A stretch of 64,000 nucleotides of DNA from Ridgeia piscesae (taxonomy: Eukaryota > Annelida > Polychaeta > Sabellida > Siboglinidae), in assembly GCA_025642075.2 (NCBI GenBank), contig JAODUO010000034.1, positions 275,001-339,000 of the forward strand, in the 5' to 3' direction. The notes under the pieces were generated by a model. The model was not told the DNA's origin and searched no databases. It was given only the letters and a program-made list of their open reading frames with translations. Every line of letters starts with the position of its first letter. Positions within the stretch are counted from its first letter, which is position 1. Positions 9,364 through 48,397 of the stretch are shown in pieces. Both the position numbers and the translations under genes were made by a program.

Positions 9364-12300
9364 TGTATATCGTGAAAAGTGGTTGAACAATGCCTTGGCT
9401 AATATATTACAATTTACCAATGTCCTAGCTGACATAAGTTAATTTTTTTAAACTTTATACATAAATAAACCCAACAATCACACTGCATAAATGACATTAA
9501 TTGTTTTTATTGATGTGGATTTTTTTTTTTAAATTAATTTCATATACATGACATCAAGCTGAGGAGAAGCCTAAAGTTACCTGTTTGTTTCCATGCATTA
9601 GAGACCCACAGCCAAAGGGGATTGTGGTTGAATTCTGGCCCCCTAATATACCACTAGTGTTATTAGCACTGGGTTAAGGGGTAGCCACACTGTGCTGGAT
9701 TGTATCACAGATTATACAGCTCTTTAGGGTATACTCAAAAACAGAGATAGCTCAGTGTTATAGTTGATCAGGAGTGATGAGTGAGTAATTACCCTGGGAG
9801 CTGCCCTAGAGACTGGGGGTGACCCCAAGGGCTCCACATAAGCACCTCCGAGGGTTTGCATGAAGTCCTAGCTTAGGAAAGTTAGGATGCATGTCATTCT
9901 GATTGCAGAATTCATTTGATTCGTCAATGATCAGTTAGTCTTCAGAAACTAATATTAAAGTACATGGTTCCTGGTTCCAGTAATTGATGTTAATTGAGTT
10001 CCAGCTGTATATTATTGCCAGGGTAGAGAAAAAATGTGTCTCTAAGTGGTTTTAAATAATTATAATAAAGTTTATGTAGACACTCATTTCCAAAGTACCA
10101 CTCTGTTCAATGGTGTTAATAATGTTTCCAAAATATTAATATATAAATTGCATATGTAAAGATTAATAGAAGTGCAGAAATGTGAGTGATAAAACCAGAC
10201 ATTTATAAAGATTGCTAGTATAAAAACTGCAAAATTATTTGTTTTATTTTTTAATATATTTCTCCTCAATCAGCAAAATAGTCTAATCCCTGGTCCAGTC
10301 AGTGCAACAGGGAATTCCTTCAGGCATTCTTTCTTTGAGTTTTAGTTCTCTATTTCAATTATGACAATACCCTGGTAACAAGTCTTTAGTGAATCTTATA
10401 TTAAAAAGTTGTGGCAGGTTTTGCCAAAACATTCATACGTGAAACTTCTGCTAATGTATCAGCCCGTGTCGTGTGTCAATGTCTGTTAGTGGATGTACAA
10501 GATTTTATTCTTCTGTAGATGTCAAATAAAATAGTTTTTAGTTCTTTGCTGCACATTTGTATGACACCTTTACATTGTGGCGAACTGTCTTATTGGGTTG
10601 TGGTTTCACAAAATGTTTCTTGTTGTCAGCACTGAAGGAAGTGTCAGAAGTGAACAAAGATGTCCTTTGGATGGAAGCAGTGACAGTAAGTGACAGTTTT
10701 TACGATATAGCAATTCAATTAATATTCAAGTGATGGGTGTGGTGTAAGTTGTATATTAAACCCTTACTTATCCACCATAGTTTAACGATTTAGGCACAAT
10801 AAGTTACCTTTTTATTACCTTACCCTTGTTATTACTACTTGGTCTACGTGGAGTGATTAGAGCAGCCAAACAAAATTTAATAGAAAATAAGTATGTTTAT
10901 TATTTTAACCCCTGTTAAACATAAAGGTAATACATACATATAGTTAGATAAGGTATATATTAAAAAGTTTGAAATATAAAGAAATATGACAATAAAAATA
11001 TACAAATAGGCAAAAATTATTGTTAAAGTAAGAAATATAATATATATATATATATATGAATGTTTTTACAGAGCAGATTAAAAATATTACATTTATAGAT
11101 CATGGCTTTTGACTCTTGGTTTATGTCAGTATCAACTCTATCAAGCTCAGTATCAGCACAGTACAAACAATAGTTACTTGGTTGCAGATTGTCATCACAA
11201 GAGGGCATGGCGGGTTTGCATTCAGTATTGCCGGCAACAATCCAGTTCGAGTAAATCGACTTGATGTGGGTAAGTGAAAAGATTTAATTACAATATATGT
11301 GTGTATAAAATAAATAAAAAATATGTTAATAATAAATTATTATGTTGTATTAAATAATATTTCGTAAGTTAGTACTGTCATAAACAAATTGAATGCAGCA
11401 TAACAGGTTCGCAGATTATAGAATTGGCCATTTGTAGAACCAGAGAGTCGACTAGGATGAAACCATGACCAGTCCTGTTCTTGTTGTGTTAAAATATGTC
11501 ACAGTTAGTTGTTGAGTTGAATCAAACTGATCTTGCCAGAATATTGTGTATTTATAGATGTGTAATTTAGTAATTAAGTAAAATATAGTTTGTGAAATGT
11601 TGAAGTTATATTCTAAATACATAAATTTTTCTCTTACAGGCTCCCATGCAGACATTGCTGGCCTCAAGTCAGGTGACTACATTGTGCGAATCAACGGACA
11701 GAACATATCTCGTTCCACCGCAAACAGCGTCGCAAAGATCGTCAGGTATGACCACCAGGCGGCGCTCTTGTGCTGACATAATGAAATGAGATGCTAGATA
11801 GGGCATACAGGCATAGCACCACAACCATTCCTATAAATAGACATGTCTTGACCTCTTGTTCTTACCTTACCTTGAGGTCAGAACTGATTGGTCCAGTTGT
11901 TTGTGCCTGTCATGATAACTTTTGCAGACTTTTTGCTGTAAAATATTGACTGTATGAATAGTTGGATACATGTGATAATATGTCTCATTTTCAATTTATT
12001 TAGCAGAAAATATCTGTACCTATTTCTAAAAGACTGCACGTAGGAGCTGGAATGTCTGACTTAATACTATGTTGTTATGGATGGCACTCTAGTTAGTTTT
12101 GGTAAGTTCACAGATATAGAGAATGAAATCTAGTAATTGTTTCTGTGATTTAAGCATAAGCACATGCTTAATTTAGTCATATATTACAGATTTGGAAATC
12201 AAAATCACAACAGATTAAACCAGTAGGTTTAAGGCGAAGTTGCTTGCACATATTAAGTAGACCAGGGAACTTACGATAATAAAACCTGTTTTGATTTTAT

Positions 12301-15300
12301 TCATATAAAAGTTTACATTAATTTCATTTGCAGACATTCTCGTGAGCAGATTGTTCTCGACATTCAGCGACCATATGGGTCAAAGGTCGTCCCCAGGTCA
12401 CTGTCGTCAGGCAGCACATCAGAAAATGGTAGCGACAAAGAGAATTGTGCTCCTGTCCAACATGACCAGCCGTTGCCGTGCCAACAACTCAGTGATGTCG
12501 ATGCGTTGTCGTGGCAGCGGAACAAGAAATCGTCATGGCAACAGGATGTGAAGAGACGTAGTGTTTGTAGTTCGTTTGAGGAGATGATGACATCTAGGAA
12601 GGCTGATGAGATGGAGATGTCTGTGTCTACAGACATGAGTCTGCCGTCTAGTACAGACGTAAGTTGTTGTTTTCACCAAATATATTTCACATGTTAGTTT
12701 CTTTCTTTATTACATGTGATATCAGTGGACTGCAGCGAGACTTAGACTGGTAAAGTTAGAATCCTTTGTTGACCTGTCAAACTTTTGACAGGGTCATTCA
12801 TTTCACATTGCTCCAATTGATTCCGCTTTGTGAATGCATACATGGCTATAGACAGTGGTGGATATTTGTGTATGAAGAGCCTTTGTGTATTAATTGCAAT
12901 GGGCTGAAAGCTTCCCAGAGAAGTTTAAGAAGATCCTCGATTGAACAAGTCTACTAAGAAGACACTTTGGGCAGTGCTGAGGACTGGATCCTTTACTCTA
13001 CAAGAACTTCAACCTTTTTTACTTTTAGGTAAAATTAAAACTTTAAAAGTTGAAGTACTGCCCTATACAGTGAATAATATAGTATAGTACAAACTGATGT
13101 GAGCTGTACTAGAGGCAGTTTGGCCACGCTCCCTCAAACATGACATTGTTATGAATCGCCACTACTCACCACCCATCTCTCTGTTGTGTGTTACTTTATT
13201 CTTCAAACCCAGTGTACAGAACCTTTTGAAACCCAGACGTTTGGGATGTTTATCTGCTGCCACCTAGTGACTACTGTGTTAAGCCACGATGTATGTGTTG
13301 CCACCTAGTGACCACCACGTTACACCATCTGTATATGTGCTGCCACCCAGTGACCACCATGTTACACCATCTGTACATGTGCTGCCACCAAGTGACTACC
13401 ATGTTATACCATCTGTACATGTGCTGCCACCCAGTGACCACCATGTTACACCATCTGTACATGTTCTGCCACCCAGTGACCACCATGTTATACCATCTGT
13501 ACATGTTCTGCCACCCAGTGACCACCATGTTACACCATCTGTACATGTGCTGCCACCCAGTGACCACCATGTTACACCATCTGTAATGTGCTGACACAGT
13601 GACTCAACCATGTTATACCATCTGTACATGTGCTGCCACCCAGTGACCACCATGTTACACCATCTGTACATGTTCTGCCACTTAGTGACCACCATGTTAT
13701 ACCATCTGTACATGTGCTGCCACCCAGTGACCACCATGTTACACCATCTGTACATGTGCTGCCACCTAGTGACCACCATGTTCGACCACCAGTGTATGTG
13801 GTGAATGCACTGCTTCAAAGGTGTTGCTGTTGTGTTTGTGTGAGAAAAAGTCCTACACTTTCCAGTTTTACAAATACTTGACTTTCTCTAGAAGCATTAT
13901 ATGAATTGAATTAAGTTCTTGGCTATTTATTCCTATCCTTTTAAAATTTCTCAAAATTGTCTTCTCTGACATTTGACATTAATTATTTGTGTTTTCAGAA
14001 ATGGAACCATCAGAGTGCCGCTGGACTTCACTGTGACGTGGCCCACCAGATGGTGCTGGCATGTGAGAGTGACTTCGTTGAAGTGATGCAGTCTGGGATA
14101 CAGAGATACTCTCGCCCCTTGAGACACCGAGTTATATCACACTCGCAACATGCCACGTTGTTTCAGAACATTGAAAAGGTTTGCGGGTTTATTTGACACA
14201 AAGAAAGCGTTTAATTATGTTATATTAGTAAAGACGACACCCTTATCAGGATGTTGTGTAATTTTTATTAATATTTTTCTATGGATATACAAGTTATATA
14301 CCCAGGGGTACTTATAGAATATGGACACTAGTGATTCATGGAGATTGTTTTGTGCTGGACACTTACAAATGATAGTGATATGTGACCATCCTGGTGGTTC
14401 TAATGATCCAGGGAGATCCTTCTGGATACTAATGATCCTCGTGGAATCAAATGATCTGCTGAAGACCTTGCTGTCCCTTAAATCAGTGCATGTGTTTCTA
14501 CACATGATCAGATACTTTCAAGGTTCACTTGCAGTTCACAATACTCTCATGAATCCTCTCCATCAGGTATACCTGTAGTTCCCAGGACCACTTACCTTTG
14601 TCAGTCTTACTGCACATGTAACTTCCCTGTGTCTTGACCATTGGCCTTTGTCAGTCTTACTGCACATGTAACTTCCCTGTGTCTTGACCATTGGCCTTTG
14701 TCAGTCTTACTGCACATGTAACTTCCCTGTGTCTTGACCATTGGCCTTTGTCAGTCTTACTGGACATGTAACTTCCCTGTGTCTTGACAATTGGCCTTTG
14801 TCAGTCTTACTGCACATGTAACTTCCCTGTGTCTTGACCATTGGCCTTTGTCAGTCTTACTGGACATGTAACTTCCCTGTGTCTTGACCATTGGCCTTTG
14901 TCAGTCTTACTGGACATGTAACTTCCCTGTGTCTTGACAATTGGCCTTTGTCAGTCTTACTGCACATGTAACTTCCCTGTGTCTTGACCATTGGCTTTTG
15001 TCAGTCTTACTGGACATGTAACTTCCCTGTGTCTTGACAATTGGCCTTTGTCAGTCTTACTGGACATGTAACTTCCCTGTGTCTTGACCATTGGCCTTTG
15101 TCAGCCTTACTGGACATGTAGCTTCCCTGTGTCTTGACCATTGGCCTTTGTCAGTCTTACTGGACATGTAACTTCCCTGTGTCTTGACCATTGGCCTTTG
15201 TCAGTCTTACTGGACATGTAACTTCCCTGTGTCTTGACCATTGGCCTTGGTCATTCTTACTGGACATGTAGCTTCCCTGTGTCTTGACCATTGGCCTTTG

Positions 15301-18300
15301 TCAGTCTTACTGCACATGTAACTTCCCTGTGTCTTGACAATTGGCCTTTGTCAGTCTTACTGGACATGTAACTTCCCTGTGTCTTGACCATTGGCCTTTG
15401 TCAGCCTTACTGGACATGTAACTTCCCTGTGTCTTGACAATTGGCCTTTGTCAGTCTTACTGGACATGTAACTTCCCTGTGTCTTGACCATTGGCCTTTG
15501 TCAGCCTTACTGGACATGTAACTTCCCTGTGTCTTGACAATTGGCCTTTGTCAGTCTTACTGGACATGTAACTTCCCTGTGTCTTGACCATTGGCCTTTG
15601 TCAGTCTTACTGGACATGTAACTTCCCTGTGCCTTGACAATTGGCCTTTGTCAGTCTTACTGGACATGTAACTTCCCTGTGTCTTGACCATTGGCCTTTG
15701 TCAGTCTTACTGGACATGTAACTTCCCTGTGTCTTGACCATTGGCCTTTGTCAGTCTTACTGGACATGTAACTTCCCTGTGTCTTGACCATTGGCCTTTG
15801 TTAGTCTTACTGGACATGTAACTTCCCTGTGTCTTGACCATTGGCCTTGGTCAATCTTACTGGACATGTAACTTCCCTATGTCTTGACCATTAATTGGCC
15901 TTTGTCAATCTTACTGGACATGTAACTTCCCTGTGTCTTGACCATTGACCTTGGTCAATCTTACTGGACATGTAACTTCCCTGTGTCTTGACCATTGGCC
16001 TTGGTCAATCTTACTGGACATGTAACTTCCCTGTGTCTTGACCATTAATTGGCCTTTGTCAGTCTTACTGGACATGTAACTTCCCTGTCTTGCAGCTGGT
16101 GGCTATTTCTGAGTACCTGGTGCGGGGTCTGCAGGACTCAAGCAACTGGACAGTGGGCAGTGATGGAGTGGACATTGGCAAGATATATCAGTCAAAGGTA
16201 AGAAAATCCACGACTGCGGATATAATTAATTTAGGTTTGATATTATCTGAAACATTGAAAAACACCCCTAATTTAGTTAATGTTGTATCTGCAGATGGCA
16301 TTGTAAATTGCATAACTGAGTTGTATGTACACTCATGTGTCGTTTATCCTGTCTTTAATAATCCCGTTGTTTCATGATTTGTCTATTTCTGTGGCACCCG
16401 TCTTGATGCCAGGTATAATAGGGTGTTTCACTAATCTGCACGTTTAGACCAAACCATTTGTGAACCGAAGTGAGCGGATAAATGAGATATGAGTGCACAC
16501 ATACGATATATACTTCTGCGGATTATTTATTTATACAGAATCCATCGGCTGTACATATAAAATGAATAAGTATCAAACCAATAGTGACATGTTCTAATCA
16601 CTCCTCGTAGACCAACTAGTAATAACAACGGTAAGGTACTAATGAGGTAACTTATTGTGCCTAAATCGTTCAACGCCATGTCTGTAGCACTTGTAGAATC
16701 ATTGTACTTTCACTGTTGCTACTGAGATTATAAAAGCAACATATCAGAGGATAATGTTGCATTGAGAAGGATATATGATCTGTAAATTATAAATTACAAA
16801 GTAAACATTAATGTAGCGAGGTTGTTTATCAGTAAAATTCACGACTGTCAATTGGTCAGACCAGGTTTTAAGACCACCTACAGCCAAACAAGGGTAAATT
16901 GTAGACACTACTACGCCTGTGTCTTCTGTAAGAAATATGAAAAACTGTTATCTTGGTGTCTCTCTTTACTTGGCTAAGTAAGACATCCTTCATAGTGCCA
17001 AGTCTATCTTCAGTTTATCAAATCTAAAACGTTAATCTTTCAATGTTGCTGTAGGAGTTGTGGACTTGTGGTTGTCATGTTTGTAGTAGTAGAACAGTCA
17101 TCACATGATAACTGTGATTCAAAGACACTCATCTGACGTGACAATGATGACACGTTCTGTGGCATGTCATAGGTGACGATGATGACAGCGGCCTACACAG
17201 CCTACTGTGGTGGACTGAGGCGGGCTGTGACGCTAGTGGCAGACCTGCAGATGAGCACACAGTTCGACAGCTTCCTCAAGGTATGGCTGCAGATTGTCAT
17301 GGTGTCAGCCAGCTGTACCCCTGGCTGATCAATTTGTAAAACTCTGAATTTAAGCTTAGCCAATGAAATTGCCCACCTGCTCTGTGGTTATCAGTAGAGC
17401 AGGTGACCATAATATATAAACATATTTCAGCCAACCCAAGTTAATAGCAATGTTTACCCCCCTAGTATGCAAACGGGTCATTCATTATATTGGGATAGCC
17501 ACCAGTCGTCACAGCTGATGCAGTCATGACTGGTGAAGTCATTTATTTGTTTGACTTCTCCAACTTAGCACAGGGATCTGTCAGGGTTAGTGTTGAATGG
17601 CAAACAACCCTGGCTTGTGAGGGTGTCGGTTCTTACCCTCCCTACCACTTAGTTTACTGTTAGATCCTGTATCTCTCATGATGCCAAATTTCTTATTTTA
17701 TACTCTCCAATTTAAAGTGATCACATCCTGTTTGGGCCGAAGGCCTCAACATGCTGCGTCCAGATCTGCCAATCTATCCTCTATCGTCTGCCAGCTGATG
17801 CCCTTGTAGCATTCGACTAGTTCATCTCTCTGGTGTCTGGCGTCTGGCCGAACTTTCTCTAGATCGTTTCCCTTTATAAGGTTTCAAGATAGTCATTCAC
17901 AGGGTCCATCAGTTCTCATTCCACTAACGTGGCCTGCCCTGGTCCATTTCCATCTTATGACTTGTTCACGATTACATCTGTGACCATTACCTTCTTATGA
18001 CTTGTTCACGATTACATCTGTGACCATTACCTTCTTATGACTTGTTCACGATTACATCTGTGACCATTTCCATCGTATGACTTGTTCACGATTACATCTG
18101 TGACCATTTCCATCTTATGACTTGTTCACGATTACACCTGTGACCATTTCCATCTTATGACTTGTTCACGATTACATCTGTGACCATTTCCATCTTATGA
18201 CTTGTTCACGATTACATCTGTGACCATTACCTTCTTATGACTTGTTCACGATTGTGACCATTTCCATCTTATGATTTGTTCACGATTACATCTGTGACCA

Positions 18301-21088
18301 TTTCCATCTTATGGCTTGTTCACGATTACATCTGTGACAATTTCCATCTTATGGCTTGTTCACGATTACATCTGTGACCAATTCCATCTTATGACTTGTT
18401 CACGATTACATCTGTGACCATTTCCATCTTATGACTTGTTCACGATTACACCTGTGACCATTTCCATCTTATGACTTGTTCACGATTACATCTGTGACCA
18501 TTGCCTTCTTATGACTTGTTCACGATTACATCTGTGACCATTACCTTCTTATGACTTGTTCACGATTACATCTGTGACCATTTCCATCTTATGACTTGTT
18601 CACGATTACATCTGTGACCATTACCTTCTTATGACTTGTTCACGATTGTGACCATTTCCATCTTATGACTTGTTCACGATTACATCTGTGACCATTTCCA
18701 TCTTATGGCTTGTTCACGATTACATCTGTGACCATTTCCATCTTATGGCTTGTTCACGATTACATCTGTGACCATTTCCATCTTATGGCTTGTTCACGAT
18801 TACATCTGTGACCATTTCCATCTTATGACTTGTTCACGATTACATCTGTGACCATTTCCATCTTATGGCTTGTTCACGATTACATCTGTGACCATTTCCA
18901 TCTTATGACTTGTTCACGATTACATCTGTGACCATTTCCATCTTATGACTTGTTCACGATTGTGACCATTTCCATCTTATGGCTTGTTCACGATTACATC
19001 TGTGACCATTTCCATCTTATGACTTGTTCACGATTACATCTGTGACCATTGCCTTCTTATGACTTGTTCACGATTACACCTGTGACCATTTCCATCTTAT
19101 GACTTGTTCACGATTACATCTGTGACCATTTCCATCTTATGACTTGTTCACGATTACATCTGTGACCATTTCCATCTTATGGCTTGTTCACGATTACATC
19201 TGTGACCATTTCCATCTTATGACTTGTTCACGATTACATCTGTGACCATTTCCATCTTATGACTTGTTCACGATTGTGACCATTTCCATCTTATGGCTTG
19301 TTCACAATTACATCTGTGACCATTTCCATCTTATGACTTGTTCACGATTACATCTGTGACCATTGCCTTCTTATGACTTGTTCACGATTACACCTGTGAC
19401 CATTTCCATCTTATGACTTGTTCACGATTACATCTGTGACCATTGCCTTCTTATGACTTGTTCACGATTACATCTGTGACCATTACCTTCTTATGACTTG
19501 TTCACGATTACATCTGTGACCATTGCCTTCTTATGACTTGTTCACGATTACATCTGTGACCATTTCCATCTTATGACTTGTTCACGATTACATCTGTGAC
19601 CATTTCCATCTTATGACTTGTTCACGATTACACCTGTGACCATTTCCATCTTATGACTTGTTCACGATTACATCTGTGACCATTGCCTTCTTATGACTTG
19701 TTCACGATTACATCTGTGACCATTACCTTCTTATGACTTGTTCACGATTACATCTGTGACCATTTCCATCTTATGACTTGTTCACGATTACATCTGTGAC
19801 CATTTCCATCTTATGACTTGTTCACGATTACATCTGTGACCATTTCCATCTTATGACTTGTTCACGATTACATCTGTGACCATTTCCATCTTATGACTTG
19901 TTCACGATTACATCTGTGACCATTTCCATCTTATGACTTGTTCACGATTACATCTGTGACCATTACCTTCTTATGACTTGTTCACGATTACATCTGTGAC
20001 CATTTCCATCTAATAACTTGTTCACGATTACATCTGTGACCATTGCCTTCTTATGACTTGTTCACGATTACATCTGTGACCATTTCCATCTTATGACTTG
20101 TTCACGATTACATCTGTGACCATTTCCATCTTATGACTTGTTCACGATTACATCTGTGACCATTTCCATCTTATGACTTGTTCACGATTACATCTGTGAC
20201 CTTTACCTTCTTATGACTTGTTCACGATTACATCTGTGACCATTTCCATCTAATAACTTGTTCACGATTACATCTGTGACCATTTCCATCTAATAACTTG
20301 TTCACAATTACATCTGTGACCATTGCCTTCTCAAATGAGACATTGCTGTTACATCTATGGTTATATAATTCTCACGATGTTCTTGTGTTGTTCTCAGGAG
20401 CAGCCCTTGTTGAGTGGTCAGCCGTCCATCATTGAGTTCATCTGTAGACCACACGAAGTACGTATACAAACTGTACCTGCAGAACCAATTATTTCCCAGT
20501 GTACCTTGCTCTGCCCATTAAATAAGGGGAATTTATAAAACATGTTATTTAAAAAAGTTTGAATTGAGCACATTTGTCTAAGCCTAGCCAGGGTTTGTAT
20601 AGAGAGAATGGTAAGTAGCACCAACAGTTCCTCGGTTGTTACTGTACATTCAGGTGATAAGTCAGGGTCGGCTCATGTCAGCATGCATTGAATACATGGG
20701 TAAGTTAAACAACTTCCCCTGGCAGCAACTTCTTTACACACTCAGACCTCTCTATTAAGGACATCTTGAGACTGGGCAAAAGTGACCAGAATAGTCAGGT
20801 GACTGTATTAGCAAGACTAGTTTGCAACACCTTGACTATTATGGAAACAAAATCGTGATGTCCCTGGATGACCTTAATTTTGAGGTGGCTACAATACCGA
20901 GGTGACTGTAAAAAGAGATTTTACTAGATTTATTTTATAACTAGGATTGATATGGGTTTCTGTCCTGAAATAAAACAATATCTTTTCACATGGCTGATGG
21001 TTTTGTGGAAAAAGTCTATAACATATATGACTGAAACAATGCGATATCTGATTGGTTAATGAATGCCCGGTATGTATATATATAATGT

Positions 21089-21134: not shown

Positions 21135-24100
21135 CCATGTTATAATGGCATGTTTTGTAGAGCATACTATTCAATGTACTGGATTGTGTGATAATCTTTG
21201 AAAAGTGAACTTGTTGCTATGGTTGTTTTATGTTGTTTTGTAGCATCTCTGTGACCTTGTCCTGAGCCTCCAGTCGGTGTTGACCTCAGACAACTCATCA
21301 GCCTGTCTCCAAAGTGTTGTCTCAGGTAGCCAGCCATGTCACTAGACATAAAGCAATTTTTTATTGCAGTCTGAAGTTTTAATTTGTACACGAATCCTGC
21401 AAGTGTGGAAACGTATATTGTCAATGTGTCAACAAAGTGTATCATAGATTGGAATTTACTGTTAAGTGTGTAACATACGGCATCTTGACATCCCTCTCCC
21501 TCTCCCCCTCCCCCCTCCCCCTCCCCCCCCCCTCCCCCTCCCCCTCCCCTCCCCTCCCCTCCCCCTCCCCCTCCCCCTCCCCCCTCCCCCTCCCCCTCCC
21601 CCCCCTCCCCCTCCCCCTCCCCCTCCCCCTCCCTCCTCCCCTCCCTCCCCCTCCACCTCCACCTCCCCCTCTCTCTCTCTCTCCCTCCCATTCCCCCTCC
21701 CATTCACCATCCCCTTCCCTCTTCCTCCCATTCCCTCTTCCTCCCATTCCCTCTTCCTCCCATTCCCTCTCCCTCCCATTCCCTCTCCTATTACCTCTCC
21801 CTCTCTCACTAAAGTGCCTATATCCTGACAAATCTAAGGTCAGAAGTCACACAGTAACCAGTAACCACGATGTGACCAGGAAGAGGCAAAAGTCAAGCCC
21901 AGACATAGCCATTGTCCATCTACACAAGAGTGAACTAACTGACCTGTTGTATTGACCGGTTACAGAGCTACGGAAGTGTTGCAGCCAAATCAATGAGACA
22001 CGTGCGACACACCCAAGTAACACTCTGTCAGTGTCATCAGAGTCAGTGAATGTTTCCGTGTCAACACTGATGTCAGGGTCCTCAGTGATGTCAGAGTCAC
22101 TGATGATGTCACAGTCAGCAAGTCAGTTGACAGAGTCAGTGTCACTGAAGTCAAGGTCAAGTGTTGGACAAGTTGGTGTTGAGATCAGTAGTCTACTGAG
22201 TAGACTTGTGTTCCCGCGCCATCTGCAGGTAAGAACGGTCACTCCAAGACGTGTTGTCATCAAGTGGTCGTATTAGAGAGGTGCAGTTATTTCTGGTTTG
22301 TGGAGTGCAGACTACAGAAGCCAGGATCTCTGCTGTCATATCGAATCTTAGGCATGTTTGCTCAGCATACGTTGATCCAGGTCATTTGAGTACCTGGTTA
22401 TAAACAGTGGTGGATTTTAAAAGAATAATATTCATGGGGGTTTATTTCAGCATAAGAAGTGAAGATAGTGTTCGATTGAACGAGTCTACGTGCACACTGT
22501 GCAGTGCTAAAGATTGGATATTGGGTTATATAAGAACTTATTATTTTTTTTACTAATATATGGTATTGTTTTTTTCATCAGTAGAATTTTTGAAGATCAT
22601 CCAGGGGGCATTGTTACTAAGTATTCATACAAAACACATTACCTCGGTACATGAGTTTTTATCAGTTTTTATATATTTTACAAAGAAATAATACTTGCCA
22701 AGTGAAATGTACTGATGGCTATGAGTATAGTTTATAGAAAAAAATATTAGTATGAATCATTGACTCTTGAAATGTCAAATGTGTTGACAGAATTTCCAGT
22801 TGACTGGCCAGACCAGACATATCATCTACTCGGGCGAACTTCTGTTTGACGCAAGTATCAAGGTATGTCATCTTATGTAACTGTGTCACCACTAACTAGA
22901 TACAAATACAGTCATTGTTGTGTTGTCTTATATAATTGTCAACAGATAAAGGAGAGTCATTGTTGTGTCGTCTTATAAAATTGTCACCAGATAAAGGAGA
23001 GTCATTGTTGTGTCGTCTTATATAATTGTCACCAGATAAAGGACAGTCATTGTTGTGTCATCTATATAATTGTCACCAGATAAAGGACAGTCATTGTTGT
23101 GTCGTCTTATATAATTGTCACCAGATAAAGGACAGTCGTTGTGTCATCTTATATACTTGTCACCAGATAAAGGAGAGTCATTGTTGTGTCGTCTTATATA
23201 ATTGTCACCAGATAAAGGACAGTCATTGTTGTGTCGTCTTATATAATTGTCACCAGATAAAGGACAGTCGTTGTGTCATCTTATATAATTGTCAACAGAT
23301 AAAGGAGAGTCATTGTTGTGTTGTCTTATATAATTGTCACCAGATAAAGGACAGTCATTGTTGTGTTGTCTTATATAATTGTCACCAGATAAAGGACAGT
23401 CATTGTTGTGTTGTGATATATAAATGTCACCAGATAAAGGAAAGTCATTGTTGTGTCATCTATATAATTGTCACCAGATAAAGGACAGTCATTGTTGTGT
23501 CGTCTTATTTAATTGTCACCAGATAAAGGACAGTCATTGTAGTGTCATCTACATAATTGTCACCAGATAAAGGACAGTCATTGTCTTATATAATTGTCAC
23601 CAGATAAAGGACAGTCATTGTTGTGTCATCTATGTAATTGTCATCAGATAAAGGGCAGTCATTGTTGTGTCGTCTAAGTTTTTCATGGTGTCACATACAT
23701 TGATATTTTAATTAATGAAATGGTATTTCTAAGAAAGGCATAATTCTGTATACCTCAAGGTCTCGTGCTCATGTTGTCATGGCAGTTGGTTGTGTAAATA
23801 GCAAGGCAATTCCTGGAGATTAAAATAAACTGTTCCTTGTGTCTAGGTGTGGGCAGTGCTGTTGACTGGTGTCCTGTTATTAGAGAGCTGTTCTTGTGTC
23901 CAGGTGTGGGCTGTGCTGGTGATTGACCTGCTGTTATTAGAGAGCTGTTCTTGTGTCTAGGTGTGGGCTGTGCTGTTGACTGACCTGCTGTTATTAGAGA
24001 GCTGTTCTTGTGTCTAGGTGTGGCCTGTGCTGTTGACTGACCTGCTGTTATTAGAGAGCTGTTCTTGTGTCTAGGTGTAGGCTGTGCTGTTGACTGACCT

Positions 24101-26806
24101 GCTGTTATTAGAGAGCTGTTCTTGTGTCTAGGTGTGGGCTGTGCTGTTGACTGACCTCCTGTTATTAGAGCTGTTGTTGTGTCCAGGTGTGGGTTGTGCT
24201 GTTGACTGACCTGCTGTTATTAGAGAGCTGTTCTTGTGTCCAGGTGTGGGCTGTGCTGTTGACTGACCTGCTGTTATTAGAGCTGTTCTTGTGTCCAGGT
24301 GTGGGTTGTGCTGTTGACTGACCTGCTGTTATTAGAGAGCTGTTCTTGTGTCCAGGTGTGGGCTGTGCTGTTGACTGACCTGCTGTTATTAGAGAGCTGT
24401 TCTTGTGTCTAGGTGTGGGCTGTGCTGTTGACTGACCTGCTGTTATTAGAGCTGTTCTTGTGTCCAGGTGTGGGCTGTGCTGTTGACTGACCTGCTGTTA
24501 TTAGAGAGCTGTTCTTGTGTCCAGGTGTGGGCTGTGCTATTGACTGACCTGCTGTTATTAGAGAGCTGTTCTTGTGTCTAGGTGTGGGCTGTGCTGTTGA
24601 CTGACCTGCTGTTATTAGAGAGCTGTTCTTGTGTCTAGGTGTGGGCTGTGCTGTTGACTGACCTGCTGTTATTAGAGAGCTGTTCTTGTGTCCAGGTGTG
24701 GGCTGTGCTGTTGACTGACCTCCTGTTATTAGAGAGCTGTTCTTGTGTCTAGGTGTGGGCTGTGCTGTTGACTGACCTGCTGTTATTAGAGAGCTGTTCT
24801 TGTGTCCAGGTGTGGGCTGTGCTGTTGACTGACCTCCTGTTATTAGAGAGCTGTTCTTGTGTCCAGGTGTGGGCTGTGCTGTTGACTGACCTCCTGTTAT
24901 TAGAGAGCTGTTCTTGTGTCCAGGTGTGGGCTGTGCTGTTGACTGACCTCCTGTTATTAGAGAGCTGTTCTTGTGTCCAGGTGTGGGCTGTGCTGTTGAC
25001 TGACCTCCTGTTATTAGAGAGCTGTTCTTGTGTGCAGGTGTGGGCTGTGCTGTTGACTGACCTCCTGTTATTAGAGAGCTGTTCTTGTGTCCAGGTGTGG
25101 GCTGTGCTGTTGACTGACCTCTTGTTATTAGAGAGCTGTTCTTGTGTCCAGGTGTGGGCTGTGCTGTTGACTGACCTGTTATTAGAGAGTTGTTCTTGTG
25201 TCCAGGTGTGGGCTGTGCTGTTGACTGACCTCCTGCTGTTGACCCGGCCAGACTCAGATGACCAACTGGTTGTGGTTGACACTCCAGTACTGCTCCATGA
25301 CGTCGTCAGCCATGACTTCTCACGTCCTCACCGTAAGTCAGCAGCCTCTGTGTTCTCTCACATGGCCTGGTGCTGATGAGTTGATGATCAATAGGGTGTG
25401 GTTCCTTATTAGTTCCCAAAAACTAGAAGCAAGATAGTAAAAGTCAAATTACCAGTCCGCCCACATGTTAAAAAAATCCCTGTGGCTCTAGCATGCTCGT
25501 TTGTGTTGACCAAATTGTCTTAAAGAAGCACATTGATCGGTTTTGCAAATATTAGTTGAATGACATTTGTTTATTTTATTTTTATATTAAGTACAACACT
25601 GCAAATATTGATGGTTACAATACAGTGTTTCTTAACCTTAGCTGGCAGCAGCCCAAGTGTTATTCACTGGACTTACATGATGACCAATCCATTTGAATAG
25701 TTAATTTATGATAAGTGGTGATAACACGTGTGAAAGGTGTCTTAATCCTAGTTAGGTTCCATATCACTTGAACATTATGAAACAAGGAACAATATCAACT
25801 AGTTGTAATGCATATGCACATACACCTTCTGACTTTAAAAAAAATATCCGCAGGTCAGCAGGATGCCATCTACGTTTCACTGTTGGTAAAAGAAAATAGT
25901 GCCCTCAATTCTTAACTTGTTTAGTTGCAATCCAAATTAAGTTCTCGTTACAAACGGTATGGGGCTTTTAAAGAACATCCCAAGTTATTAACACACCTAT
26001 ACTATTGTTACTATTTGTAGTAACATTGTACCAAGTAACCAAAAATAGTCATTCATTCAAAATTTGCCGGTTGAACATGTAAGAATTAAAATGGCAAGAA
26101 TAGCACAGTTTGTTAGTCTATATCATCATAGAAAGAGGACACCCTTTGTTAATCTAAACATGATGGAAAGAGTTGGGAAAACTGTAAGATTTTGGTACTG
26201 TTTGAAACATGTCATTGTACCTCAGTTATGTCCTGGTGGTAATACACCTTGTACTAAGGAGGCAGACAAGCTGACAGACAATACTGACTAGCCAAATGGT
26301 TTTGTTTGTTGCGCCTCTGAGCTTGAACCTTTTAAGGATATAGGCACTATAGATGTTTTACAATTATTATTATTATAACGTGTCTAGACGTGTTGACTAA
26401 AGTGATATTTTTCACTGAATGTGTACCTGGAGTGAATAAAAATGGCATCTATTTTTGTTATGGACATTATTAATTATAAACATTGGTAATAATAGTGTGA
26501 TTTATCTGAGTTAAGATTTTAGTCTTCACGTTTTCTATTTACATACCCGAATTAAGCAACGATAAAGTTATTATTTTCTGTTCAAAGAATAAGCTTTGTC
26601 TTAAGTAAAATGTGACTTCTTCATATTCAGCTTCGGAGTTTGTGCTGGCAGTAAGCAGTTGCCATGGTGACGGACACAATTACAAGACACGCTTGTTGAC
26701 GTTCTGTGCACCAAACATTGAACAGAAGACAACATGGAGAAACATTCTTCTGCAGAGACTGAGAAGACAACCTCCTGTCTGTCACAGCAGTGACAGCTTC
26801 TTGTAG
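721..26806 (+). CDS. C2-PDZ-DH-PH protein (RGS3-like N-terminus, RhoGEF-like C-terminus), 3' part of gene
   Basis: Fifteen exons join with matching phases: 721-793, 3316-3421, 10631-10686, 11188-11269, 11640-11745, 12334-12658, 13999-14178, 16096-16197, 17173-17280, 20398-20457, 21244-21325, 21966-22228, 22791-22862, 25206-25332, 26631-26806 (stop TAG 26804-26806). They encode about 638 residues; the 5' end lies outside the window. All chosen introns are GT-AG. Domain order is end of a C2 domain, PDZ, a serine-rich linker, DH, a second Ser-rich linker, PH. C2 plus adjacent PDZ is typical of RGS3, whereas DH-PH modules activate Rho GTPases at membranes. The likely role is a membrane-recruited Rho regulator, but the DH conserved region 3 is degenerate (see that entry), so exchange activity is uncertain. 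Introns are loaded with minisatellites. No vertebrate orthologue with this exact architecture comes to mind, so no symbol is given. Confidence 0.85.
1255..3315. repeat. About 31-bp GT-rich minisatellite ending at a splice acceptor
   Basis: Unit of 29-31 bp built from gacatgtagcggtgtgtg plus ttgtagggtgtgt, roughly 65-70 copies with many substitutions and 2-bp length variants. It occupies most of the intron 794-3315 and its last copy supplies the tgttgtag acceptor of the exon at 3316. Long open frames on the minus strand (hundreds of residues of [15 protein letters not shown] repeats) are artefacts of a stop-poor tandem repeat. The left flank (950-1255) is a degenerate tract of related gtgacaggtagc-like motifs. 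Confidence 0.95.
3684..5578. repeat. 48-bp minisatellite, roughly 40 units, with an indel-rich core
   Basis: The unit begins gagcttgatcactttgctag and continues ctacaggctagaccactaga plus gtattgtc. Units at 3690-4360 and 5150-5575 are nearly identical. Units between about 4370 and 5150 carry many scattered 1-5 base deletions and one foreign segment (about 4368-4400). It lies in the intron 3422-10630. Confidence 0.96.
5579..6763 (+). other. Intron sequence between two minisatellites, with a (TA)n run
   Basis: No exon is supported here. Short open frames (for example 5912-6112) have no recognisable domain or splice context. A (TA)n microsatellite of about 90 bp lies at 6277-6366, followed by unremarkable sequence leading to the 17-bp array. 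Confidence 0.6.
6277..6366. repeat. (TA)n microsatellite
   Basis: Uninterrupted TA dinucleotide run of about 45 repeats. Confidence 0.98.
6764..7856. repeat. 17-bp minisatellite, about 64 units
   Basis: Unit ggactactggtgtggtt with variants tgactactggtgtggtt and ggcctactggtgtggtt. Since 17 is not a multiple of 3, all forward frames translate to WLDYWCG-type repeats without stops, which explains several spurious open frames. It lies in the intron 3422-10630. Confidence 0.97.
7857..10630 (+). other. Intron remainder, no exon recognised
   Basis: Mostly AT-rich sequence with a (TA)n run at about 9308-9361 and a small cluster of taataacaggtag repeats at 9120-9170. Open frames at 7938-8270 (-), 8900-9097 (+) and 10084-10269 (-) have no family resemblance. 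Phases of the exons on either side (3316-3421 ending phase 1, 10631 starting phase 1) already match, so no extra exon is required. Confidence 0.6.
9308..9361. repeat. (TA)n microsatellite
   Basis: TA dinucleotide run with one interruption (aaatata) near 9321. Confidence 0.95.
10631..12658 (+). CDS. Four exons encoding the PDZ domain and Ser-rich linker
   Basis: Exons 10631-10686, 11188-11269, 11640-11745 and 12334-12658. The PDZ begins with [20 protein letters not shown], where GGFAFSI is the carboxylate-binding-loop region (usual form GLGF; here G-F-A-F). It continues with [20 protein letters not shown] and [11 protein letters not shown] and ends about RPYGSK (12380). The linker (to 12658) is polar, with [13 protein letters not shown] as a possible kinase-type site. 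The PDZ most resembles the first PDZ of RGS3-type proteins in having PVRV after the loop. PDZ domains bind C-terminal peptides of membrane or scaffold proteins; the ligand is unknown. Confidence 0.9.
10782..10860 (+). repeat. Dispersed repeat, inverted partner at 16594-16673
   Basis: About 79 bp, including gatttaggcacaataagtta, is closely matched in reverse complement by 16594-16673. Both copies are intronic in the same gene. The family is unidentified; it may be a remnant of a dispersed transposable element. Confidence 0.8.
12775..12990 (+). mobile_element. Diverged SINE fragment (same family as 46000-46327)
   Basis: Sequence from about 12795 follows the 3' two thirds of the tRNA-derived SINE at 46000: the landmarks are attgctcca, atggctatagacagtggtgg, tccca-gagaagtt, ttgaacaagtct, ggcagtgctgaggactgga and acaagaactt. 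The tRNA-like head with A and B boxes is absent or unrecognisable. It lies in the intron 12659-13998. Confidence 0.75.
13250..13797. repeat. 42-bp minisatellite, about 13 units
   Basis: The unit contains ccatctgtacatgtgctgcc plus acccagtgaccaccatgtta and ca. The period of 42 is a multiple of three, which makes several frames open on both strands; these are not genes. It lies in the intron 12659-13998. Confidence 0.95.
13999..22228 (+). CDS. DH (RhoGEF) domain exons and following Ser-rich linker
   Basis: Exons 13999-14178, 16096-16197, 17173-17280, 20398-20457 and 21244-21325 encode the DH domain; exon 21966-22228 adds a Ser/Thr-rich linker ([16 protein letters not shown]). Conserved region 1 is visible as [12 protein letters not shown]...RPL, the next helix as [19 protein letters not shown], and region 2 as [18 protein letters not shown] and FDSFLK. 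Region 3, normally P-x-Q-R-I-x-x-Y-x-L-L-L, reads [16 protein letters not shown] across the exon 20398-20457/21244-21325 junction. It aligns without gaps but lacks the Q-R and Y residues. DH domains accelerate GDP release from Rho GTPases; the altered region 3 makes activity doubtful. Confidence 0.82.
14585..16090. repeat. 50-bp minisatellite, about 30 units, abutting a splice acceptor
   Basis: The unit contains acttccctgtgtcttgacca, ttggcctttgtcagtctta and ctggacatgta. The final unit reads acatgtaacttccctgtcttgcag and supplies the polypyrimidine tract of the exon at 16096. Variant units with an extra taat insert occur near the 3' end (about 15890 and 16045). Confidence 0.97.
16198..17172 (+). 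other. Intron, no gene; contains the inverted dispersed repeat copy
   Basis: Holds the 16594-16673 repeat and otherwise AT-rich sequence. A short open frame running out of the exon at 16096 into this intron (to 16377) is read-through, not coding. Confidence 0.6.
16594..16673 (-). repeat. Inverted partner of the 10782-10860 repeat
   Basis: The reverse complement matches 10782-10860 over its full length with about ten differences. Confidence 0.8.
17715..17935 (-). mobile_element. Probable remnant of a LINE 3' end
   Basis: In reverse orientation the segment resembles the C-terminal tail of RTE-like LINE reverse transcriptases, with a weak G-R-P-R-like stretch and W-containing tail, as also seen more clearly at 29650-29800. 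Stops interrupt it. It directly precedes the 40-bp array and its last bases (ggtccatttccatcttatga) form the first array unit. Confidence 0.4.
17938..20330. repeat. 40-bp minisatellite, about 60 units
   Basis: The unit contains catttccatcttatgacttg plus ttcacgattacatctgtgac. Three subtypes alternate (catttccatc, cattaccttc, cattgccttc), and a 29-bp short unit lacking tacatct recurs every several units. It fills most of the intron 17281-20397. The seed is probably the adjacent LINE-like remnant. Confidence 0.97.
21074..21131. repeat. (TA)n microsatellite
   Basis: TA-rich run in the intron 20458-21243. Confidence 0.95.
21490..21812. repeat. Polypyrimidine (CCCTCC)n-type tract, about 320 bp
   Basis: The + strand is almost purely C and T, first ccccctcccc-like, then ctcccattccctcttc-like units. 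It lies in the intron 21326-21965. Arg/Gly- and Pro-rich open frames in every phase are composition artefacts. Such homopurine-homopyrimidine mirror tracts can form triplex (H-)DNA. Confidence 0.97.
22365..22545 (+). mobile_element. Diverged SINE 3' fragment
   Basis: Same family as 46000-46327: landmarks are gagtacctggttataaacag, tggtggat, ttcgattgaacgagtct, gcagtgctaaagattggata and atataagaactta. The tRNA-like head is missing. It lies in the intron 22229-22790. Confidence 0.75.
22791..26806 (+). CDS. PH-domain exons and C-terminus of the RhoGEF-like gene
   Basis: Exons 22791-22862, 25206-25332 and 26631-26806. The PH domain reads [52 protein letters not shown]..., ending in the C-terminal helix with the invariant Trp ([15 protein letters not shown]). 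PH domains beside DH domains bind phosphoinositides or partner proteins and tune exchange activity. The exon at 25206 starts inside the 57-bp tandem array; the acceptor at 25204-25205 was chosen because it is the last one and gives a continuous PH fold. The stop follows 16 residues after the helix. Confidence 0.88.
22905..23675. repeat. 45-bp minisatellite, about 17 units, close to a splice donor
   Basis: The unit contains ttgtcaccagataaaggaca, gtcattgttgtgtcgtctta and tataa. The first bases of the intron after the donor at 22863 (gtatgtcatcttatgtaact then gtgtcacca) already resemble the unit, suggesting that it arose from donor-proximal sequence. Confidence 0.95.
23847..25235 (+). repeat. 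57-bp tandem array of a 3' splice site plus exon start, about 24 units
   Basis: Each unit consists of 30 bp identical or nearly identical to the first ten codons of the PH exon ([10 protein letters not shown]) followed by 27 bp matching the end of the intron (ttattagagagctgttcttg then tgtccag). The last eight units (24753-25205; seven of 57 bp and one of 54 bp) contain no stop and are in frame with the exon at 25206. Several upstream units end in tctag instead of tccag, which puts an in-frame TAG at the junction, and a few carry 2-bp deletions. Confidence 0.95.
25333..26630 (+). other. Last intron, includes LINE 3' tail
   Basis: AT-rich intron. An open frame at 26064-26291 has no recognised domain. 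At 26304-26380 lies a short LINE 3' tail. Confidence 0.6.
26304..26380 (+). mobile_element. Short 3' tail of an L2-like LINE
   Basis: Shares tgcgcctctgagcttga, aaggatataggc and a terminal (att)n run with the 3' end of the LINE at 61650-62352 (gcgccactgagcttgatttt, gaggatattggcgc, (tta)n). It is extremely 5'-truncated. Confidence 0.65.
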
Positions 26807-36917: not shown

Positions 36918-37440
36918 GAACGACAACATAGATGCATCATAGGCGATGCTGAATCGGTGAACTTCAGTTAAAGGAACACGATTGTTTGTAGGCCTATATT
37001 CCTAGTCAAGTATGCCTTTATATACATTGTTGTTACATTACACATACGTGTGGTTAGTTAAATGATGGCTGACCATTCCTCGTTTCTACATATAATGTCC
37101 ACTTACTACATTACATATAATAGTGTATTGTATGTAATCTAATTATAGCGCCTACGTCTAAAACTGCGGGTAATAGACGACACCCACATATTTTTGAGCC
37201 TTTTTGCATGTTTCGTGTGAAATGATGTTCAAACTGTAATATTGTAAACAAACTATCCAGTTTAAAAACAAACGTTTTTGACAGTATTCTGGGTTGTCTT
37301 ACGTAGTTGTCTGTTTCTGTCGACGCTTTTGTTTTGATCTACCGACGCACTTATGCCTTTTTACTGTAGATCTACATGTGTTTTTCTATCGACGTTTCTC
37401 TTTTGTTTTGTCGACGTATTTGTCTCTTCGGTTGACGCAT
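36918..37440. other. GPCR 3' flank, no further gene
   Basis: AT-rich sequence without a clear AATAAA; from about 37290 it grades into degenerate units of the 22-bp array. Confidence 0.5.
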
Positions 37441-39960
37441 TTTATTGTTCTGTCTTGTATTGTCTCGTCCATGTACTTGTCCTGTCCTATCAACGCACGT
37501 GTCTTGTTCCGTCCACGCACTTGTCTTGTTCTGTCGACGTACTTGTTTTGTTCTGTCGACGTACTTGTTTTGTTCTGTCGACGTACTTGTCTTGTTCTGT
37601 CGACGTACTTGTTTTGTTCTGTCGACGTACTTGTCTTGTTCTGTCGACGTACGTGTGTTGTTCTGTCGATGTACTTGTCTTGTTCTGTCGACGTATCTGT
37701 CTTGTTCCGTCGACGCACTAGTCTTGTTCTGTCAATGTACTTGTTTTGTTCTGTCGACGTATTTGTCTTGTTCTGTCGACGTACGTGTCTTGTTCTGTCG
37801 ACGTACTTGTTTTGTTCTGTCGACGTATTTGTCTTGTTCTGTCGACGTATTTGTCTTGTTCTGTCGACGTACGTGTCTTGTTCTGTCGACGTACTCGTCT
37901 TGTTCTGTCGATGTACTTGTCTTGTTCTGTCGACGTACGTGTCTTGTTCTGTCGACGTATTTGTCTTGTTCTGTCGACGTATTTGTCTTGTTCTGTCGAC
38001 GTACGTGTCTTGTTCTGTCGATTTACTCGTCTTGTTCTGTCGACGTATTTGTCTTGTTCTGTCGACGTACGTGTCTTGTTCTATCGACGTACTTGTTTTG
38101 TTCTGTCGACGTATTTGTCTTGTTCTGTCGACGTATTTGTCTTGTTCTGTCGACGTACTTGTCTTGTTCTGTCGACGTACTCGTCTTCTTCTGTCGACGT
38201 ACTCGTCTTCTTCTGTCGACGTACGTGTCTTGTTCTGTCGACGTACTCGTCTTGTTCTGTCGACGTACTTGTCTTGTTCTGTCGACGTATTTGTCTTGTT
38301 CTGTCGACGTACGTGTCTTGTTCTGTCGACGTATTTGTCTTGTTCTGTCGACGTATTTGTCTTGTTCTGTCGACGTACGTGTCTTGTTCTGTCGACGTAC
38401 GTGTCGTGTTCTGTCGACGTATTTGTCTTGTTCTATCGACGTATTTGTATTGTTCTGTCGACGTACGTGTCTTATTCTGTCGATTTACTCGTCTTGGTCT
38501 GTCGACGTATCTGTCTTGTTCTGTCGATTTACTCGTCTTGTTCTGTCGACGTACGTGTCTTGTTCTGTCGATTTACTCGTCTTGTTCTGTCGACGTACTT
38601 GTCTTGTTCTGTCGACGTACTCGTCTTGTTCTGTCGACGTATTTGTCTTGTTCTGTAGACGTACGTGTCTTGTTCTGTCGATTTACTCGTCTTGTTCTGT
38701 CGACGTACGTGTCTTGTTCTGTCGATTTACTCGTCTTGTTCTGTCGACGTACGTGTCTTGTTCTGTCGACGTACTCGTCTTCTTCTGTCGACGTACTTAC
38801 CTGTATTGTTCTGTCGACGTACTCGTCTTGTTCTGTCGACGTACTCGTCTTGTTCTGTCGACGTACTTACCTCTATTGTTCTATCGACGTACTCGTCTTG
38901 TTCTATCGACGTACTCGTCTTGTTCTGTCGACGTACTTACCTGTATTGTTCTGTCGACGTACTCGTCTTGTTCTATCGACGTACTCGTCTTGTTCTGTCG
39001 ACGTACTTACCTGTCTTGTTCTGTCGACGTACTTACCTGTCTTGTTCTGTCGACGTACTTACCTGTCTTGTTCTGTCGACGTACGTGTCTTGTTCTGTCG
39101 ACGTACTCGTCTTGTTCTGTCGACGTACTTACCTGTATTGTTCTGTCGACGTACTTACCTGTATTGTTCTATCGACGTATAGGTATTGTTCTGTCGACGT
39201 ACGTGTCTTGTTCTGTCGATTTATTCGTCTTGTTCTGTCGACGTATCTGTCTTGTGCTGTCGATTTACTCGTCTTGTTCTGTCGACGTACGTGTCTTGTT
39301 CTGTCGATTTACTCGTCTTGTTCTGTCGACGTACTTGTCTTGTTCTGTCGACGTACTCGTCTTGTTCTGTCGACGTATTTGTCTTGTTCTGTCGACGTAC
39401 GTGTCTTGTTCTGTCGATTTACTCGTCTTGTTCTGTCGACGTACGTGTCTTGTTCTGTCGATTTACTCGTCTTGTTCTGTCGACGTACGTGTCTTGTTCT
39501 GTCGACGTACTCGTCTTCTTCTGTCGACGTACTTACCTGTATTGTTCTGTCGACGTACTCGTCTTGTTCTGTCGACGTACTCGTCTTGTTCTGTCGACGT
39601 ACTTACCTGTATTGTTCTATCGACGTACTCGTCTTGTTCTATCGACGTACTCGTCTTGTTCTGTCGACGTACTTACCTGTATTGTTCTGTCGACGTACTC
39701 GTCTTGTTCTATCGACGTACTCGTCTTGTTCTGTCGACGTACTTACCTGTCTTGTTCTGTCGACGTACTTACCTGTCTTGTTCTGTCGACGTACTTACCT
39801 GTCTTGTTCTGTCGACGTACGTGTCTTGTTCTGTCGACGTACTCGTCTTGTTCTGTCGACGTACTTACCTGTATTGTTCTATCGACGTACTTACCTGTAT
39901 TGTTCTGTCGACGTACTTACCTGTATTGTTCTATCGACGTACTCGTCTTGTTTTTATCGA
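37440..39960. repeat. 22-bp minisatellite with a GTCGAC core, over 110 units
   Basis: The unit is gtcgacgtacttgtcttgtt plus ct, with variants tcgatttactcg, tcgacgtattt, tcgacgtactcg and a longer 26-bp form containing acttacctgtattg. Since 22 bp is not divisible by 3, translation repeats every 66 bp (22 residues) and all forward frames are open for hundreds of codons; these are not genes. A block starting near 38745 is repeated almost exactly from 39481, giving a large internal duplication of about 736 bp. Confidence 0.97.
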
Positions 39961-39984
39961 CGTGTGTCTGGTTCAGTAGATTCT

Positions 39985-48038: not shown

Positions 48039-48397
48039 CAGAGCGACGTCCCAAGCTGAAAACGTACAATGAAGAAAACATCGAAACTCTTGGAATGTGC
48101 ATTGCTACAGTCAACCACATGGGAAAGAAACATAGACTACAATTTGTAGGTTGTTCCCAAAGGAAGACAGTCACTTATCGGTGCCAGCGAATGGGCTTGG
48201 TGACAAGAGAGTGTGGCGTACGGATAGTTTGCACAGTTAAAGAAAATGGGGTCCTGACAAGTGCAGAAATAAAGAAAGAGTACCCGGATATATTCAAGGG
48301 ACTAGGCTGTACTGTGTACCCTTTGTGGCGAGGGAAGTCCCGCAGTCTCAGAAGCAGAAGTTGAAGAAAAAAGCTTGACAGACTGGTTCAGACAGGG

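What the first reader, a model, noticed from the sequence alone, without database searches (positions are those of the whole stretch)
23847..25235. Tandem array of about 24 splice acceptors, the last eight in frame with the PH exon
Each 57-bp unit joins the last 27 bases of the intron (including ttcttgtgtccag) to the first 30 bases of the exon (VWAVLLTDLL). In the final eight units (24753-25205) there is no stop and the distance to the true exon (453 bp) is a multiple of three. Choosing any of these acceptors would therefore add multiples of 18-19 residues (pattern VWAVLLTDLLLLESCSCVQ) inside the PH domain. Older units tend to carry TAG at the junction or 2-bp deletions. It looks like a machine for length-variable protein isoforms, or a buffer of decoy acceptors. 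It may be the most unusual structure in the window.
Basis: partly seen in the sequence, partly recalled or inferred. Interest (0 to 1): 0.88.

Follow-up and report, generated by a model that had tools for sequence, protein, structure and literature searches.

The report
Splice-site minisatellite in worm RhoGEF gene
In the genome of a likely annelid worm, the end of one intron together with the start of the next exon is repeated in tandem to give 25 copies of the same splice site, and 10 of 108 other exons sampled carry the same kind of repeat at an edge, so the stack is probably a tolerated by-product of runaway duplication at splice junctions rather than a device for making protein variants.

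Summary
In detail: 25 copies of the acceptor (T/C)AG|GTGTGG at 23847-25206, units of 57 bp (three of 55, one of 54); only copies from 24753 on read open into the exon. The isoform-machine reading is not supported. (1) A close relative (unnamed; an ENA contig of the same length as those of the 88% GPCR and ADPRH matches) runs from a matching intron tail straight into the same exon through one acceptor, with no array. (2) The same kind of array spans a splice junction at 10 of 108 other exons sampled in this genome: five acceptor arrays, five donor arrays. (3) Only 2 of those 10 units are a multiple of three long. (4) The antisense strand of the array has the longer open run. Junction-spanning minisatellites are described in amphioxus as 'mirages', where RT-PCR suggests normal splicing. 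This genome is not Branchiostoma; erythrocruorin-linker matches (annelid by recall) point to an annelid. The 25206 copy is likely the one used for the normal protein; the rest would be tolerated cryptic sites. New is the class in a likely annelid and its frequency. No RNA data were available, so acceptor use remains open.

The parts
23830..25235 (+). 57-bp minisatellite spanning the intron/exon junction; 25 acceptor copies at 23847, 23904, 23961, 24018, 24075, 24132, 24187, 24244, 24299, 24356, 24413, 24468, 24525, 24582, 24639, 24696, 24753, 24810, 24867, 24924, 24981, 25038, 25095, 25152, 25206
24753..25205 (+). last eight units, open and in frame with the exon (seven of 19 residues, one of 18)
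25206..25332 (+). exon VWAVLLTDLLLLTRPDSDDQ..., part of a likely PH domain; donor gtaagt at 25333; likely the acceptor copy used for the normal protein
   Evidence: the relative's ORF P0088 enters the exon at the same point
22791..22862 (+). upstream exon (start 22791 or 22800), ending ATCAAG|gtatgt, phase 0
   Evidence: by eye
26631..26806 (+). last coding exon of the PH region, with stop
   Evidence: by eye
11641..11760 (+). PDZ exon of the same likely gene (approximate limits, by eye)
   Evidence: Pfam PDZ_6 32.3 bits, cut-off 27
13999..14178 (+). exon with the start of a likely DH (RhoGEF) domain
   Evidence: Pfam RhoGEF E 0.018, 15.7 bits, below the cut-off 27.6; limits by eye
14595..16088 (+). 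50-bp minisatellite in the same gene, ending 7 bp before the acceptor of the exon at 16096
17944..20331 (+). 40-bp minisatellite in the same gene, ending 66 bp before the acceptor of the exon at 20398
22908..23675 (+). 45-bp minisatellite starting 45 bp after the exon end at 22862, in the same intron as the acceptor array

Best explanation
The array is a minisatellite that copies one 3' splice junction 25 times in a likely RhoGEF (PDZ-DH-PH) gene; the copy next to the exon (25206) is likely the acceptor that makes the normal protein, and the 24 upstream copies would be tolerated cryptic acceptors that sit in the intron. Shown: the unit is 30 bp of exon start plus 27 bp of intron end; a close relative has a single copy at the same place; arrays of the same class sit on splice junctions (called by eye) of 10 of 108 other exons sampled. 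Inferred: a tandem duplication across the junction is not purged because splicing can still use the exon-proximal copy, so it can grow by slippage or unequal exchange like any intronic minisatellite. Inferred: copy choice rests on exon length (127 nt from the last acceptor, about 1.5 kb from the first) and on decay of stop-containing transcripts, because the acceptors themselves are near-identical. Each of the 24 units holds at least one branch-point-like yTnAy motif in its exon-derived part, 31-38 nt before the next acceptor; that it serves as a branch point is inferred. Low-level use of upstream copies, including the eight in-frame ones, would be expected as noise.
For: Array anatomy; yTnAy motifs in 24 of 24 units. 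Relative without the array: P0088 (unnamed ENA contig of 317,607 bp, the figure also given for the 88% GPCR and ADPRH hits P0002, P0090, P0091) reads ...CVVMAVGSLNSKAIPVPCVQ and then VWAVLLTDLLLLTRPDSDDQ; the window's intron tail before the array reads HVVMAVGCVNSKAIP in one frame (12 of 15 identical) and the exon is 40 of 42 identical. Genome-wide class: 10 of 108 exons, 5 acceptor arrays (L018, L080, L094, L112, L114) and 5 donor arrays (L028, L074, L110, L113, L120). Proximal array edges crowd at exon edges: 18 between -60 and +50 bp of the match edge against 2.7 per 50 bp at 50-400 bp (bins chosen after seeing the list). Unit lengths are not selected for frame: 2 of 10 multiples of three. 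Literature: amphioxus mirages, for which Adh3 data and globin RT-PCR suggest no interference with regular splicing (PMC3087553, section 16 read whole; PMC3902484, one passage). No RNA fold stronger than shuffles in the last units (z 0.87).
Against: No transcript was seen, so use of 25206 is not shown. Acceptor strength does not favour 25206 over its neighbours: the sequences are near-identical. The last eight acceptors are all non-TAG while 9 of the first 17 are TAG (probability 0.012 under random placement), which selection for an open frame would also give. The relative's state is not polarised by an outgroup: it may have lost an array. The protein search that found it scored only the 7992 candidates sharing most words, so relatives with arrays may have been missed. 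Junctions in the ten comparison loci were called by eye from HMM match edges and GT/AG; L094 is uncertain and L114 has only three copies. The 108 loci are not all independent: several lie in one gene, and at least four pairs of fetched stretches overlap.
Confidence: 0.8

Rival explanations
1. Isoform machine: the eight in-frame acceptors are used on purpose and lengthen the likely PH domain in 18-19-residue steps.
For: Eight copies open and in frame, 57 = 19 codons, all with AG. No TAG among the last eight acceptors (probability 0.012 under random placement). The Pfam PH score hardly changes when one unit is inserted (18.4 against 18.0 bits, both below the cut-off).
Against: Absent in a close relative. 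Exon-derived columns vary more than intron-derived ones. Unit length in frame in only 2 of 10 arrays of the same class. The antisense open run is longer. The insert repeats a hydrophobic stretch inside the domain.
Confidence: 0.07
2. Dual-specific array: every CAG|GTGTGG can serve as acceptor and as donor, so transcripts that land on an upstream copy are spliced again from the regenerated AAG|GTGTGG and lose the array, or keep a random number of units, as reported for the polyubiquitin gene UBC.
For: All 25 sites are AG|GT. As a donor CAG|GTGTGG scores 5 of 7 consensus positions, the commonest score of the best GT near the sampled exon ends (37 of 108), and 5 or more is reached by about 4% of all GT in those loci. 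UBC is a tandem array of AG|GT dual-specific sites with a ladder of isoforms (PMC10809524, abstract and section 7).
Against: 0 of the 5 other acceptor arrays has GT after the AG, so re-splicing is not what lets such arrays persist in this genome. GTGTGG lacks the consensus A at +4 and T at +6, and the TAG form scores 4. A single 57-nt unit would be a very short intron.
Confidence: 0.08
3. Assembly artefact: the array was inflated or invented by the assembler.
For: No raw reads were available; the relative has one copy.
Against: Units carry scattered private variants and indels, and 10 of 108 sampled exons, on ten different contigs, show different junction arrays.
Confidence: 0.04

Closest known systems
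'Mirage' minisatellites of amphioxus (Adh3, globins BflGb6 and BflGb9, TnC, PGBD5; PMC3087553 and PMC3902484)
   Same: Tandem repeats whose unit spans an exon-intron boundary, at 3' or 5' boundaries; many but not all copies keep AG or GT; edge copies escape homogenisation; unit lengths overlap (10-72 bp in Adh3).
   Different: Other lineage: this genome's ADPRH groups apart from Branchiostoma and it has erythrocruorin-linker matches. More copies here (25) than in the two BflGb6 haplotypes (6 and 3). Instability and normal splicing, reported in amphioxus, are untested here.
Human UBC array of dual-specific splice sites (PMC10809524, abstract and section 7 read)
   Same: A tandem array of AG|GT at a fixed spacing that is a multiple of three.
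   Different: In UBC each unit encodes a whole functional protein and splicing in both roles is shown; here the unit is part exon, part intron, and no use is shown.
Human IFI6 (6-16/G1P3) minisatellite with multiple splice donors (title seen in a reference list; content recalled, paper not held)
   Same: A minisatellite that supplies many copies of one splice site; five donor arrays of that sort were found in this genome.
   Different: The window array supplies acceptors; splice donor use in IFI6 is known to me from the title and recall only, and use is unknown here.
Intron gain by tandem duplication of AG|GT (model discussed in PMC3087553, section 16)
   Same: Duplicated junctions could furnish new splice sites.
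   Different: No new intron is seen here; the array enlarges an existing intron.

Membership tests
Mirage-type (junction-spanning) minisatellite | Repeat unit contains an exon-intron boundary | tested here: met
   30 bp exon + 27 bp intron per full unit, with small indels in four of 24
Mirage-type (junction-spanning) minisatellite | Copies carry the splice signal (many, not necessarily all) | tested here: met
   25 acceptors found by their AG|GTGT in an array of 24.8 copies
Mirage-type (junction-spanning) minisatellite | Both 5' and 3' boundaries are affected in the genome | tested here: met
   5 acceptor and 5 donor arrays among 108 exons
Mirage-type (junction-spanning) minisatellite | Length instability between alleles or cells | not testable with these tools
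   No second haplotype of the locus found in the assembly; array absent in a relative
Mirage-type (junction-spanning) minisatellite | Normal mRNA splicing from the authentic boundary | not testable with these tools
   No RNA data
Mirage-type (junction-spanning) minisatellite | Distribution: described in cephalochordates (not part of the structural definition) | tested here: not met
   ADPRH clade of the window, 99/99 support, separate from the Branchiostoma clade (100/100) on an unresolved backbone; seven erythrocruorin-linker exon matches above cut-off
Dual-specific splice-site array (UBC-like) | AG|GT at every unit boundary | tested here: met
   25 sites
Dual-specific splice-site array (UBC-like) | Sites used as both donor and acceptor | not testable with these tools
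   Donor consensus score 5 of 7 only
Dual-specific splice-site array (UBC-like) | Unit is a self-contained coding module | tested here: not met
   27 of 57 bases are copied intron

The most novel reading that the evidence does not exclude
In this annelid lineage splice junctions themselves are the preferred seeds of minisatellites: about one exon in ten carries a stack of 3 to more than 40 spare acceptors or donors grown from its own boundary. Introns thus grow from their ends, independently of the amphioxus mirages, and the genome holds thousands of ready-made splice sites from which new isoforms and new introns can be drawn.
Probability: 0.4. Interest if true: 0.78.

Novelty: new member of a known kind. 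Interest (0 to 1): 0.57.

Why it matters
The papers that I saw treat junction-spanning minisatellites as a feature of amphioxus. Finding them on 10 of 108 sampled exons of a likely annelid would make them a recurrent outcome of genome evolution and a natural experiment: dozens of near-identical splice sites side by side, differing mainly in position, ask directly how the spliceosome picks one of many equal acceptors or donors, and whether duplicated junctions feed intron gain. It also warns that gene predictors may misplace exon borders in such genomes.

Tried and rejected
Isoform machine: rejected as the main reading on the relative's single copy, the unit lengths of the other arrays and the pattern of variation. 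RNA structure masking the decoys: no fold stronger than shuffles in 24981-25260. A second allele of the locus in the assembly: none found. Microhomology CCTG at the first duplication: seen by eye, not pursued. PDB sequence search of the PH region (with the mistyped letters, see below): two chance-level matches, no PH relative. Papers: no report of junction-spanning repeats in annelids was seen in the searches; two found no paper, and the listings of 41, 55, 58 and 59 were cut (20 of 128, 15 of 17, 12 of 39, 12 of 48). An earthworm metallothionein paper reports intronic minisatellites, but the passages seen say nothing of junction spanning (PMC12783039); passages of PMC4039745 and PMC2812944 were not closer. 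Structure prediction was not run.

Full report
What is there. TRF finds one array at 23830-25235, period 57, 24.8 copies, 95% matches. Cutting it at each AG|GTGT gives 25 acceptors: 20 units of 57 bp, three of 55 bp (the same GAGAG to GAG deletion) and one of 54 bp. Each full unit is the first 30 bases of the exon (GTGTGGGCTGTGCTGTTGACTGACCTCCTG or near it) followed by 27 bases of intron end. Acceptors are CAG in 16 copies and TAG in 9. Read from each acceptor the sequence is open into the exon from 24753 on; all 16 earlier starts meet a stop. The first unit differs most from the consensus (5 substitutions), the others by 0 to 3 substitutions plus the indels named. By substitution, 12 of 30 exon-derived columns and 4 of 27 intron-derived columns vary. 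The unit matches nowhere else in the 628-Mb assembly that the search can see (25 matches, all here), and no second allele of the locus was found.

The gene. Upstream lie a PDZ exon (32.3 bits, over the Pfam cut-off of 27) and an exon with a weak RhoGEF-domain match (15.7 bits, below the cut-off of 27.6); the exon at the array belongs to a weak PH match (18.4 bits, below the cut-off of 25.1). The order PDZ-DH-PH makes a RhoGEF likely, not proven. The same gene carries three other minisatellites close to splice sites: 14595-16088 ends 7 bp before an acceptor, 17944-20331 ends 66 bp before one, and 22908-23675 starts 45 bp after an exon end (junctions by eye). By hand, arrays with period above 15, leaving out the C-rich stretch at 21491-21805, cover about 15.3 kb of the 64 kb.

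A relative without the array. A protein search with the open frame 24753-25373 gave one protein, P0088 (122 aa, unnamed, ENA, longest contig 317,607 bp); only the 7992 candidates sharing most words were scored. It reads MLACVVMAVGSLNSKAIPVPCVQ and then VWAVLLTDLLLLTRPDSDDQLIVVDTPVVLHDVVSHDFSRPH. The window's intron just before the array reads HVVMAVGCVNSKAIP in one frame (12 of 15 identical), and the exon is 40 of 42 residues identical (the BLAST alignment, which runs on past the exon, is 48 of 58). So in that relative the intron tail runs directly into the exon through one acceptor. Without an outgroup, gain here and loss there are not told apart.

A genome-wide class. I took exon matches of three Pfam families in the same assembly: PH (23 of 23 rows), myosin head (50 of 75 rows: the 30 best as loci and 20 of the next 24) and protein kinase (40 of 135 rows, chosen for short matches without having seen their DNA). 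Five loci with the same or nearly the same score as another locus (L012, L020, L021, L061, L063) were dropped beforehand as likely duplicate contigs; that was not checked by alignment. The remaining 108 are not all independent: several exons share a gene, and at least four pairs of stretches overlap. TRF arrays (period 15 or more, 3 or more copies, 80 bp or more) reach or overlap the match edge in 13 of 108. Reading these, ten have a unit that contains exon end, splice site and intron: acceptor arrays L018 (32 bp, 43 copies found), L080 (20 bp, 18), L094 (40 bp, 12, of which 11 keep AG), L112 (45 bp, 11) and L114 (36 bp, 3); donor arrays L028 (41 bp, 32), L074 (53 bp, 10), L110 (34 bp, 10), L113 (34 bp, 15) and L120 (38 bp, 13, of which 10 keep GT) (the fetched stretch cuts several arrays, and copies beyond the mismatch limit are missed). 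L026 and L047 lie just upstream of the acceptor and L078 is doubtful; they are not counted. Proximal array edges fall between -60 and +50 bp of the match edge 18 times, against 2.7 per 50 bp at 50-400 bp (Poisson P about 2e-5); the bins were set after seeing the list, and match edges only approximate exon edges. These 18 spread over all three families (4 of 20 PH, 7 of 48 myosin, 7 of 40 kinase loci).

What this says about function. If such arrays were kept for in-frame isoforms, unit lengths should favour multiples of three; 2 of 10 do (36, 45), below the one third expected by chance. In the window the open run follows from the unit: 57 is divisible by three and the consensus holds no stop; 12,525 of 20,000 shuffled tails stay open, and the antisense strand has an open run of 274 codons against 161. 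Against this, the last eight acceptors hold no TAG while 9 of the first 17 do (probability 0.012 under random placement); a recent local expansion explains it as well, since units 18-22 differ from one another at a single site. The donor-like score of CAG|GTGTGG (5 of 7) leaves room for re-splicing or for a UBC-like ladder (PMC10809524), but none of the five other acceptor arrays is AG|GT.

How it most likely works. A duplication across the junction leaves an intact exon-proximal site, so it can be tolerated like an intronic repeat and then expand. The copies are near-equal acceptors. The exon-derived part even supplies a branch-point-like yTnAy motif in 24 of 24 units (two in 22 of them), 31 to 38 nt before the next acceptor, while the 60 nt before the first copy hold none; the motif is short and its use is inferred. 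Use of the last copy is inferred from exon size and from the amphioxus precedent, where Adh3 data and globin RT-PCR suggest regular splicing (PMC3087553, section 16 read whole). Some leak to upstream copies is likely.

What it is akin to. The same structure was named 'mirage' in amphioxus. This assembly is not Branchiostoma: ADPRH is 64% identical to B. floridae, like skates at 63-64%, and forms its own clade with unnamed relatives at 71-88% (33 proteins chosen from 120 listed); the GPCR's best named relative is Lamellibrachia; and seven exon matches to the erythrocruorin-linker family exceed its cut-off, a family that I recall as annelid. The backbone of the tree is unresolved, so the phylum rests on the last two points. 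In the searches named under Tried and rejected no report of such arrays in annelids was seen.

Noticed in passing
L028:1595-3138 (G000:C64) and L018 (G000:C1375): A 41-bp array of splice donors CAG|GTAGGT and a 32-bp array of acceptors TAG|GAGAGT at the edges of two other PH exons.
   Followed up: yes
L022 (G000:C64:137814-140942): A PH exon match in an open frame of 973 aa, with a 30-bp minisatellite that starts 9 bp after the match: a trap for gene prediction.
   Followed up: partly
window 22908-23675: The 45-bp unit looks by eye like the first 45 bases of the intron after the donor at 22863, so both ends of this intron may have been amplified.
   Followed up: no
window 26285-26376: A dispersed repeat of about 92 bp: 39 other places in the genome match it at 89-96% (a lower bound); SINE-like in size.
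   Followed up: no
window 37436-39979: A frame open over 847 codons on the plus strand, most of it a 22-bp array of about 110 copies.
   Followed up: no
G000:C1015:211404-215193: Myosin-head exon matches occur in pairs for the same profile stretches (from 91 and 121-152), as for mutually exclusive exons.
   Followed up: no
window 48029-50330 and 54438-57101: Reverse-transcriptase/integrase-like and endonuclease/reverse-transcriptase-like open frames, that is retrotransposon remnants, named by eye.
   Followed up: no
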